Source of the DNA: Aeromonadales bacterium
GTDB lineage: Bacteria; Pseudomonadota; Gammaproteobacteria; Enterobacterales; Aeromonadaceae
Reading direction: 5' to 3'
Assembly (NCBI GenBank): GCA_012518835.1
Contig: JAAYRH010000076.1
Span: forward strand, 1 to 48,744
DNA length: 48,744 bases
The stretch's first letter is position 1, and each line of letters begins with the position of its first letter. Of this stretch, positions 40,399 through 42,762 are shown one piece after another. The notes beneath the pieces are model-generated. The model ran no database searches. It had not been told where the DNA came from and saw only the letters and a list, made by a program, of their open reading frames with translations. Both the position numbers and the translations under genes were made by a program.

Positions 40399-41397
40399 AT
40401 GATAAAAAAACCATTTCTGCTTACTGCCCTAGTGTGCTTAAGCACCTTACTAGCCGGCTGTGAGCATCAAACGGATAAAATAACTGTGGCCGTCGGGCCT
40501 GCCGTCAGTGCCACCGAGCAGCTGTCTCATCAAATACTACAAAATTACGGCATTAAATTAGATGCACTTAACCTGCGCCAAGAGCGCTTTGTGGATGCGC
40601 TGGACGGCGTCGAAGAAGGAGATATTGACCTCTCACTCGGCCTGTTAGGTTTACCTGCCGAAGGAATAGAGCGACTACAGGCGGCGACCGGAGATGTAAA
40701 ACTACTCGGCTTATCCGACGAAGTAATCGCTCAGTTAGAACAACAAACCGGGTACCGACGCTTTGTGATCCCAAAAGGCAGTTATAAATTTGTTGAGCAA
40801 GATGTGCTCACCGTCGCCGCCTTTGCCGTGCTCATGGCTAATACCCAGACCATTAATGATGAAATGGGTTATCAACTCGCTAAAACCATGTATGAACAGG
40901 CGCCCGAGCTTAACCATGCACAAGCCCGATTTATGACCCTAGAGAATGCCTTGAAGGGCGGCGAGCAGCTACCTATTCACCCTGGCGCTAAACGCTTTTA
41001 TGAAGAGCAAGGCTTAACCGTCAGTTTACCCGTTGCTGAGCTAGGCAAGGTATCGAGCAAAAGTGAGTATTTAGTGGGCACCGGCAGTAATGGCGGCGAT
41101 TATTATTCTTTGGGTAAGGAGCTAACGCAACAATGGAGCCAGTCTATTCCAGGTACTAACTTTACTAATTTAAAAAGCCATGCGTCGCTGGAGAACTTAG
41201 CCAATCTTAACGATAACAAGCTAGATTTAGGCATGACAGTACAGGTAGCAGCAGGCGATGCCCTAGCGGGTCGCGGGCACTTTGCTGAAAAAGCCGTCGA
41301 TAATATCGCTTTTATAGGCCAGCTTTATCCAGAAGTGTTTCAAGCCGTTACTCGTAGTCATTACCATCTTAATGCGTTTGATGATTTGCAGCAGTAG
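40399..41397 (+). CDS. TAXI-family solute-binding lipoprotein with circularly permuted order
   Basis: 332 residues. Signal peptide with lipobox LLAGC (Cys21). Residue +2 is Glu, which would allow outer-membrane sorting. TAXI proteins are the binding subunits of TRAP-type transporters. Usually the GTGSxGGxYYxLG strand-loop comes first and LPLHPGAxxYYxExGL comes last. Here residues 27-206 match the usual second part (ITVAVGPAVSATEQLSHQIL... to LPIHPGAKRFYEEQGL). A linker (207-222) follows, and residues 223-332 match the usual first part (YLVGTGSNGGDYYSLGKEL, SLENLANLNDNKLDLG, FIGQLYPEVFQAV, ending FDDLQQ). Nothing upstream or downstream restores a normal order. No TRAP permease gene is present. 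The ligand is unknown. Confidence 0.85.
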   Translation: MIKKPFLLTALVCLSTLLAGCEHQTDKITVAVGPAVSATEQLSHQILQNYGIKLDALNLRQERFVDALDGVEEGDIDLSLGLLGLPAEGIERLQAATGDVKLLGLSDEVIAQLEQQTGYRRFVIPKGSYKFVEQDVLTVAAFAVLMANTQTINDEMGYQLAKTMYEQAPELNHAQARFMTLENALKGGEQLPIHPGAKRFYEEQGLTVSLPVAELGKVSSKSEYLVGTGSNGGDYYSLGKELTQQWSQSIPGTNFTNLKSHASLENLANLNDNKLDLGMTVQVAAGDALAGRGHFAEKAVDNIAFIGQLYPEVFQAVTRSHYHLNAFDDLQQ

Positions 41398-41660: not shown

Positions 41661-41708
41661 ATGAACTTCCTGCACGACGCCAAGCACCATCATCATTACC
41701 CACATTAG
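41661..41708 (+). CDS. hisL: his operon leader peptide
   Basis: A 15-residue peptide MNFLHDAKHHHHYPH with six histidines, four of them consecutive. Ribosome stalling at these codons when charged tRNA-His is scarce controls the attenuator just downstream. The position between promoter and terminator confirms the call. Confidence 0.95.
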   Translation: MNFLHDAKHHHHYPH

Positions 41709-41712
41709 GCTT

Positions 41713-41803
41713 TCAGAATGGCATTCTGGAACGCTTACTTTTTGGCGGCTTCCAGCAGGACAAGATACCTAAACCCTCGGAAGCATGGCTTCGAGGGTTT
41801 TTT
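41713..41803 (+). promoter_or_regulatory. his attenuator (pause hairpin, antiterminator, terminator)
   Basis: CAGAATGGCATTCTG (about 41714-41728) can form the pause hairpin. Its second arm CTGGAA can instead pair with TTCCAG (about 41750) as antiterminator. The terminator is AACCCTCGGAAGC / GCTTCGAGGGTT (41772-41798, one bulged G) followed by TTTTTT. It ends about 55 nt before hisG. Confidence 0.8.
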
Positions 41804-41859: not shown

Positions 41860-42762
41860 ATGACTTCGGATCAAAATCGTCTTCGCATCGCTATTCAAAA
41901 GTCCGGCCGACTCAGTAAAGAGTGTCAAAAACTGCTAAAAGGCTGTGGCGTTAAATTGAATATTCATGAGCAACGGTTGATCGCCCATGCTGAAAATATG
42001 CCCATCGACTTATTATTAGTACGCGATGATGACATTCCGGGGCTGGTGATGGACGGCGTGGTCGACTTAGGCATCGTCGGCGAAAACGTACTTGAAGAAA
42101 CCGTGATGGATCGTCAAGCCCAAGGCGAAAATGCCGACTATAGCGTGCTTAATCGCTTAGACTTTGGCGGTTGCCGCTTATCACTGGCCGTGGCCCAAGA
42201 CGCCGACTATCAAGGCCCGCAAAGCTTAGAAGGTAAACGCATAGCTACGTCTTACCCTTGGCTATTAAAGCGCTATATGGACAGCCAAGGCGTTAAGTTT
42301 AAAAACGTCATGCTCAATGGCTCGGTAGAAGTGGCTCCGCGTGCAGGCCTCGCCGATGCGGTATGTGATTTAGTGTCGACCGGTGCCACCTTAGAAGCTA
42401 ATGGCTTGGTTGAAGCAGATGTTATTTTTCGCTCAAAAGCGGTATTAGTACAACAGGCCAACACCCTGTCGCCAGCTAAGCAAGCGGTGATCGATAAGCT
42501 ATTACCGCGCATTCAAGGGCTACAACAAGCCCGCGAAAGCAAATACATTATGCTGCACGCCCCTAAAGATAAGCTGGAAGCGGTGATTGATTTGCTGCCC
42601 GGTGCCGAGCGCCCCACCATTATGGCGTTGGCCGGTGAAAGTAACCAAGTTGCCATTCACATGGTCAGTAAAGAAGACATGTTTTGGGAAACCATGGAAG
42701 GCTTAAAAGCACTGGGGGCGTCTTCCATCTTAGTGTTACCTATTGAAAAGATGTTTGGATAA
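41860..42762 (+). CDS. hisG: ATP phosphoribosyltransferase (long form)
   Basis: First step of histidine biosynthesis. 300 residues, the HisG-L hexameric form. [15 protein letters not shown] at the start, [25 protein letters not shown] for the phosphoribosyl site, and a C-terminal ACT-like domain for histidine feedback ([20 protein letters not shown]). No HisZ is needed. Confidence 0.97.

What the first reader, a model, noticed from the sequence alone, without database searches (positions are those of the whole stretch)
40399..41397. Circularly permuted TAXI solute-binding protein anchored as a lipoprotein
Seen: after the lipobox, residues 27-206 carry motifs that normally form the second part of TAXI proteins (VGxxxSxTE...IL at the start, LPIHPGAKRFYEEQGL at the end). 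Residues 223-332 carry those that normally open the protein (GTGSNGGDYYSLG, SLENL..L, IGQLYPEVFQAV, ending FDDLQQ where family members run on into LKGKRVSVG). The two parts join through a 16-residue linker and the new termini fall at the usual lobe-to-lobe crossover. Inference: each lobe becomes one continuous segment and the membrane anchor moves to the hinge side, so opening and partner contacts would differ. I know of no description of a permuted TAXI protein. It is an orphan with no TRAP permease nearby, and a lipid-anchored TRAP binding protein is itself unusual in Gram-negatives.
Basis: partly seen in the sequence, partly recalled or inferred. Interest (0 to 1): 0.87.

Follow-up and report, generated by a model that had tools for sequence, protein, structure and literature searches.

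The report
Naturally permuted TAXI solute-binding lipoprotein
A bacterial nutrient-binding protein is built with its two halves in swapped order; it belongs to an old, widespread family that normally sits beside its own membrane transporter gene, which this strain's lineage lacks.

Summary
The permutation is real. Residues 27-205 of this 332-aa protein match the second part of the TAXI profile and residues 220-331 the first part; re-ordered, they align in one stretch. It is not unique: 10 of 23 same-genus genomes carry it, and a scan of named genomes gave 68 loci in Halomonadaceae, Aeromonadaceae, Alcaligenaceae and Bacillota. All 78 rows tested (72 without same-contig duplicates) share the cut; the 56 rows put in trees form one clade. 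AlphaFold with 45 sequences is confident, pLDDT 90.7. The family is not orphan: 65 of 68 loci have a fused TRAP permease directly downstream. The window belongs to a five-member clade without that permease; its proteins evolve fast, yet dN/dS is 0.11-0.13 in the three measurable pairs, only one unsaturated. Genes of 2-aminoadipate/2-oxoadipate breakdown flank 17 of 18 Halomonadaceae loci but none of 41 Bacillota loci, so a C6 lysine-pathway acid is my best, unproven ligand guess. 'Orphan' and 'unusual lipoprotein' do not hold for the family. I found no printed description.

The parts
40399..40461 (+). lipoprotein signal peptide ending in lipobox LLAGC, Cys21
   Evidence: translation, read by eye; among 77 related loci a simple lipobox pattern fits 73, and one more by eye
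40477..41016 (+). residues 27-206: the part that is second in native TAXI proteins; most of lobe 2, hinge strand 2 (136-148), C-terminal part of lobe 1
41017..41064 (+). linker, residues 207-222, joining the old C-terminus to the old N-terminus
41065..41394 (+). residues 223-332: the part that is first in native TAXI proteins, with GTGS..YY, S263, E312 and hinge strand 1 (303-319)
41395..41397 (+). stop codon
38878..40272 (+). hglS, 2-oxoadipate dioxygenase/decarboxylase, upstream neighbour
   Evidence: NCBIfam NF049974, 678 bits, cut-off 550; Pfam HGLS
41661..41708 (+). probable his operon leader peptide MNFLHDAKHHHHYPH, between the gene and hisG
   Evidence: ORF; terminator-like hairpin 41771-41800; function recalled, not tested
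41860..42762 (+). hisG, start of the his operon, downstream neighbour
   Evidence: ORF; named by eye; conserved in the 15 genomes

Best explanation
The gene encodes a naturally circularly permuted TAXI solute-binding protein, tethered by an N-terminal lipid so that lobe 2 rather than lobe 1 carries the anchor. It folds into the usual two-lobe clamp. It descends from one ancient permutation; the family normally hands its ligand to a dedicated fused TRAP (QM) permease encoded directly downstream, with a GcvA-like LysR gene next in nearly all the Gammaproteobacterial loci that have the permease. In the window's lineage the permease is gone from the genome and the LysR gene from the locus, and the binding protein stayed. 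It looks constrained and keeps the amino-acid-binding core, so it probably still binds a ligand, serving another membrane partner or a sensing role. Shown: permutation, single clade, permease linkage, permease absence, constraint in other members of the orphan clade. Inferred: clamp function and transport (by homology), loss rather than never having had the permease, partner in this strain. Inferred more weakly (about 0.4): the ligand is a C6 acid of lysine breakdown, L-2-aminoadipate or 2-oxoadipate, one carbon longer than the glutamate and 2-oxoglutarate known for TAXI proteins.
For: Swapped two-domain profile match, and a single match after re-ordering. 78 of 78 family rows (72 without six same-contig duplicates) with the same cut, profile 137-143. 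One clade, 100/99 support for 56 rows. pLDDT 90.7, pTM 0.85, long strands 136-148 and 303-319. Permease downstream in 65 of 68 named loci and 5 of 9 unnamed ones; reference permease TIGR02123 717 bits. Orthologous permease absent in all 5 orphan genomes (matches of 38-46% only, besides weaker ones) and present at 92-100% in 5 of 5 linked ones. Orphan clade 100/98. dN/dS 0.127 for the closest orphan pair against 0.064-0.091 in four linked pairs. Y235, S263, V281, Y310, E312 invariant in all 72 rows of A2. Lysine/aminoadipate genes in 17 of 18 Halomonadaceae loci and in the 4 permease-linked of 6 Aeromonadaceae loci.
Against: No coordinates were available for an order-free superposition; Foldseek aligns in sequence order and its best hit, TAXI 9ibp, covers 200 columns at TM 0.45-0.48, as expected for half a permuted protein but no proof of the whole. 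The model with 10 sequences was poor (pLDDT 60.6). None of 41 Bacillota and none of 3 Alcaligenaceae loci carry the lysine genes; hglS occurs in 10 of 10 examined Oceanisphaera-type genomes and in E. coli, and the other two pathway enzymes tested pass their cut-off in 1 of those 10 genomes; so the ligand is not settled. Orphans changed 15-22 of 107 strongly conserved positions, against a median of 0 and a maximum of 8 in other rows, which could be decay. dS between the window and the two relatives compared is saturated, so constraint on the window copy itself was not measured. The window genome is 91.5% complete in 248 contigs, so a permease elsewhere could be missed.
Confidence: 0.7

Rival explanations
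1. In the window's lineage the protein is a leftover of a lost TRAP system and is decaying, with no function.
For: Permease missing in 5 of 5 orphan genomes, LysR missing at their loci; long branches, window 0.57-0.58; 15-22 of 107 conserved positions changed, six of them in all five orphans. Genome G019 has neither binding protein nor permease at this locus and keeps LysR, so the locus does erode.
Against: Open reading frames in all 5 lineages; dN/dS 0.127 at dS 0.31 between two of them; pocket core unchanged.
Confidence: 0.2
2. The orphan copy has become a sensor subunit or serves another TRAP permease of the same cell (a sharper form of the last step of the best explanation).
For: Permease gone but gene kept. 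H282, beside a ligand contact position, is H in 66 of 67 other rows and Q or N in all 5 orphans; E259 is E in 67 of 67 and K or A in the orphans, as if ligand or partner had changed. Other fused TRAP permeases exist in the genome.
Against: No receptor or other candidate partner was seen next to the gene (by eye); no direct evidence of interaction.
Confidence: 0.4
3. The family binds glutamate or 2-oxoglutarate like known TAXI proteins and the lysine-gene linkage is incidental.
For: S263, Y235 and E312, which match glutamate contacts of VcGluP, are invariant (contacts from PMC11574862 passages). No lysine genes in Bacillota loci.
Against: The most important VcGluP contact, Q93, aligns with V281 in 72 of 72 rows and Y200 with G81 in 71 of 72 (mapping by hand through TtGluBP). 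Lysine genes lie beside it in different arrangements in two families.
Confidence: 0.35
4. An ordinary native-order TAXI protein misread, or an assembly or fusion artefact.
For: None found.
Against: Swapped-order matches in 78 of 78 rows, in single ORFs from many genomes.
Confidence: 0.01

Closest known systems
TAXI solute-binding proteins of TRAP transporters (Pfam NMT1_3, TIGR02122), e.g. TtGluBP 1US4/1US5 and VcGluP 8S4J
   Same: Sequence homology over both parts, two lobes with two hinge strands, conserved serine, tyrosines and glutamate at ligand-contact positions, fused TRAP permease beside the family's genes
   Different: Order of the two parts swapped, anchor on lobe 2, Q93 and Y200 equivalents replaced by V281 and G81, and no permease in the window's lineage
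Membrane-anchored TAXI binding proteins (Roden et al. 2023, known here only through PMC11574862 passages)
   Same: Lipid anchor on a TAXI protein
   Different: Whether any of them is permuted could not be checked; the paper is not held
BP0403 TAXI-GltS system of Bordetella pertussis (PMC12344293; abstract and section 14 seen)
   Same: Predicted lipoprotein with a TAXI domain and no TRAP permease beside it
   Different: BP0403 is 503 aa with two extra domains and an SBP domain described as standard, coupled to gltS; no gltS-like ORF was seen by eye among the window ORFs

Membership tests
TAXI solute-binding protein | Homology to NMT1_3 / TRAP_TAXI above the curated cut-off | tested here: met
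   186.4 bits against 27; 173.5 against 84.35
TAXI solute-binding protein | Native order of the two sequence parts | tested here: not met
   Two domains in swapped order; hence filed as a permuted variant, not as an ordinary member
TAXI solute-binding protein | Two-lobe alpha/beta fold joined by two hinge strands | tested here: inconclusive
   Confident model with long strands 136-148 and 303-319; sequential Foldseek match covers 200 columns of a TAXI structure; order-free superposition not run
TAXI solute-binding protein | Binds a carboxylate or amino-acid ligand | not testable with these tools
   Contact residues mapped by alignment only
TAXI-TRAP transporter | Fused TRAP permease encoded next to the binding protein | tested here: not met
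   Not at the window locus and no orthologue in the 91.5% complete genome; met in 65 of 68 relatives
Lipoprotein | Signal peptide with lipobox cysteine | tested here: met
   LLAGC, Cys21, by eye; no signal-peptide predictor was run

The most novel reading that the evidence does not exclude
A single ancient circular permutation, most likely in Bacillota, produced a new class of TRAP binding protein whose lipid tether sits on the opposite lobe. It co-evolved with its own permease lineage, spread to halophilic Proteobacteria beside genes for 2-aminoadipate breakdown, and in one clade was cut loose from the permease to become a stand-alone ligand receptor.
Probability: 0.35. Interest if true: 0.85.

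Novelty: new variant of a known kind. Interest (0 to 1): 0.7.

Why it matters
It is a natural experiment on how TRAP binding proteins work. The permutation moves both termini and the membrane tether to the other lobe while the fold seems kept, so it tests which lobe must face the permease and whether hinge connectivity matters for closing. It also gives a well-bounded subfamily with a testable ligand prediction, and a clade in which the binding protein seems to have outlived its transporter. Profile searches hide all this: they sum the two parts and name it a normal TAXI subunit.

Tried and rejected
Native-order or chimera reading: rejected. RNA element in Bacillota loci that would name the ligand: 12 of 41 Bacillota loci searched; three matches, none a riboswitch; the window gave one tRNA. 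Plasmid-borne copies: none at E 1e-30. Wider spread by even sampling: full-strength hits only in the window's own genus among 394 genomes of the order (6 of 394) and only in the window's own genome among 369 of the class. The named scan used two peptide patterns, IHPGAKRF and YEE[QK]GL[TI]V, so the spread is a lower bound; of its 77 loci 68 were permuted and 9 native-order. The first scan, with the window protein alone, found nothing. Fold search: the poor 10-sequence model gave weaker hits; for the good model the TAXI chains 9ibp come first over 200 columns, then other binding proteins and HisG at about 6-12 A rmsd; the viral library was uninformative. Natural permutation among ABC binding proteins such as OpuAC was recalled, was not found in the two papers looked at (no passage; unrelated passages), and is not used. 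A search for circular permutation with periplasmic binding protein listed 15 of 17 papers, by their titles mostly engineered sensors.

For the trees 22 of 108 rows were left out (6 same-contig duplicates and 16 near copies), and 4 more long native rows. The inner root of the permuted clade differs between the two trees, so a Bacillota origin is likely, not settled. The 107 positions were chosen on the non-orphan rows, which favours those rows, although the control left each row out in turn.

Full report
What is there. The window ORF 40399-41397 (+) encodes 332 aa with a lipobox LLAGC at Cys21. Pfam NMT1_3 matches residues 27-205 to the last part of the profile, 111-289 of 289, and counts two stretches; TIGR02122 gives the same picture. 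A profile made here from 30 native-order TAXI proteins places residues 29-207 at 143-322 and residues 220-331 at 29-140. Re-ordered as 223-332 + 27-206 the protein gives one continuous match, 33-321, 228.9 bits. Against solved structures the re-ordered sequence aligns in a single stretch with all 7 distinct sequences found, while the protein as it stands shows two domains in each of the three alignments printed. So this is a clean circular permutation, cut at the DLK|(G)KRVxVG point of native proteins (sequence reading), with a linker of about 16 residues.

It is a family, not a one-off. Among 41 genomes searched, 10 carry a full-length permuted match: 10 of the 23 that the tool groups in the window's genus, none of the 18 others. 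A scan of named genomes with an alignment of ten members returned 77 loci; 68 encode the permuted form in one ORF at 44-57% identity to the window protein and 9 are native-order. They fall in Halomonadaceae (18), Aeromonadaceae (6), Alcaligenaceae (3) and Bacillota (41). All 78 rows tested, 72 without those six duplicates, show the swapped order with the same cut, profile 137-143. In trees of re-ordered sequences the permuted rows are one clade against native rows: support 100 (56 against 30 rows), 100/99 (56 against 26). Proteobacterial groups lie inside Bacillota in both trees, though the inner root moves between them. A simple lipobox pattern fits 73 of 77 loci and one more by eye; the three Alcaligenaceae rows lack the cysteine. 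An origin in Gram-positives, where binding proteins are usually lipoproteins (general knowledge), would fit.

Structure. With 45 family sequences AlphaFold2 gives pLDDT 90.7 and pTM 0.85; with 10 it was poor, 60.6; a 72-sequence job failed. The long strands 136-148 and 303-319 match the two hinge strands of VcGluP, residues 255-267 and 116-131 (PMC11574862, passages; mapped by hand through). Hence lobe 1 is one segment, about 149-302, and lobe 2 is about 27-135 plus the tail 320-332. In the native protein the N-terminus, and so any anchor, belongs to lobe 1; here it belongs to lobe 2. Foldseek aligns in sequence order; its best hit is TAXI 9ibp over 200 columns, TM 0.45 by query and 0.48 by target, which is what half of a permuted protein should give. 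I could not superpose without regard to order.

Partners. In 65 of 68 named loci a fused TRAP permease, 64-100% identical to the reference, starts directly downstream of the binding protein; three of these are cut by contig ends. The reference is TIGR02123, 717 bits. The three without are the two named members of the orphan clade (L064, L109) and L075 of Virgibacillus. In five relatives of the window (G004, G008, G012, G015, G021) hglS, permuted TAXI, permease and LysR follow each other, with hisG next in four of the five (not in G021) and a porin-like ORF (by eye) between hglS and the TAXI gene in one. The window has hglS, permuted TAXI, his leader, hisG. The orthologous permease is missing from all five orphan genomes, where matches reach 38-46%, and present in five of five linked ones; the window genome is 91.5% complete. 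LysR was looked for only at the loci. The five orphans form one clade, 100/98, so one loss is enough. Genome G019 has hglS, the porin-like ORF, LysR and hisG at this locus, with neither binding protein nor permease there. The locus thus seems to erode in more than one way.

Is the orphan alive? Between the two closest orphans dN/dS is 0.127 (dS 0.31), against 0.061 for their hisG and 0.064-0.091 for four linked pairs; two further orphan pairs give 0.106 and 0.121 at dS near 2; the window's own dS is saturated. At 107 positions conserved in at least 95% of the 67 other rows (66 permease-linked, and L075), orphans differ at 15-22, the other rows at a median of 0 and at most 8; six positions (32, 65, 75, 259, 270, 282) differ in all five orphans. 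The ligand core is kept: Y235, Y236, S263, V281, Y310, E312 do not vary in 72 rows. Near it, H282 becomes Q or N and E259 becomes K or A in the orphans. I read this as a protein still selected, with changed ligand or partner; decay is the main rival.

Ligand. NCBIfam equivalogs name one representative of each neighbour: HglS, 2-oxoadipate dioxygenase/decarboxylase, in the window (678 bits, cut-off 550); 2-aminoadipate transaminase (L048, 728, cut-off 650) and L-piperidine-6-carboxylate dehydrogenase (L045, 817, cut-off 730); and a partial match to D-2-hydroxyglutarate dehydrogenase YdiJ (L046, 678, below the cut-off of 1350, the sequence being cut by the locus end). By tblastn one or more of the four lie within the held flanks, up to 6 kb, in 17 of 18 Halomonadaceae loci, the exception being a 4.3 kb contig, and in 4 of 6 Aeromonadaceae loci, but in 0 of 41 Bacillota and 0 of 3 Alcaligenaceae loci. 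These steps run from 2-aminoadipate to 2-oxoadipate to D-2-hydroxyglutarate (general knowledge). Known TAXI ligands include glutamate and, in Proteus mirabilis, 2-oxoglutarate (PMC11574862 passages), so a one-carbon-longer ligand is natural. Relative to VcGluP the key Q93 is V281 and Y200 is G81, which would change and open the side-chain pocket. Against this, hglS is in all ten Oceanisphaera-type genomes examined and in E. coli, and the dehydrogenase and the transaminase each pass their cut-off in one of the ten. I give the ligand about 0.4.

What is known. Full-text searches for circular permutation, or permuted, with TAXI and TRAP returned no paper holding all terms; the looser search listed 10 of 101 papers, none on this by title. 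No paper held 2-aminoadipate and TRAP transporter, or aminoadipate, HglS and transporter. Subscription papers are mostly not held, Roden et al. 2023 among them. Of PMC12344293 I saw the abstract and section 14, of PMC11574862 passages only. The lipid anchor itself is known for TAXI proteins.

Verdict. A real, old, widespread circularly permuted subfamily of TAXI binding proteins with its own TRAP permease; the window copy is an orphaned member. New variant of a known kind.

Noticed in passing
window 41661-41800: A probable his operon leader peptide with six histidines (MNFLHDAKHHHHYPH) followed by a terminator-like hairpin at 41771-41800, as in a standard his attenuator.
   Followed up: partly
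L140 5222-10897 (G019): Relative in which hglS, a porin-like ORF and LysR stand in front of hisG with neither the binding protein nor the permease at this locus.
   Followed up: yes
L075 4370-8570 (Virgibacillus sp. MSJ-26): Permuted binding protein without a permease in the held flank, followed by a 996-aa ORF that was not classified.
   Followed up: no
L087, L097, L098 (Alcaligenaceae): Permuted members without a lipobox cysteine by the simple pattern, with the permease still downstream.
   Followed up: no
L011 and L012 (G005, G014): Orphan members with a C-terminal extension of some 30 residues beyond the usual end.
   Followed up: no
L045 3971-5599 and eight other Halomonadaceae loci: An ORF of one cluster directly upstream of the permuted binding protein in 9 loci; the one tested (L045) resembles BCCT-family transporters, 333 bits, below the cut-off of 408.
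   Followed up: no
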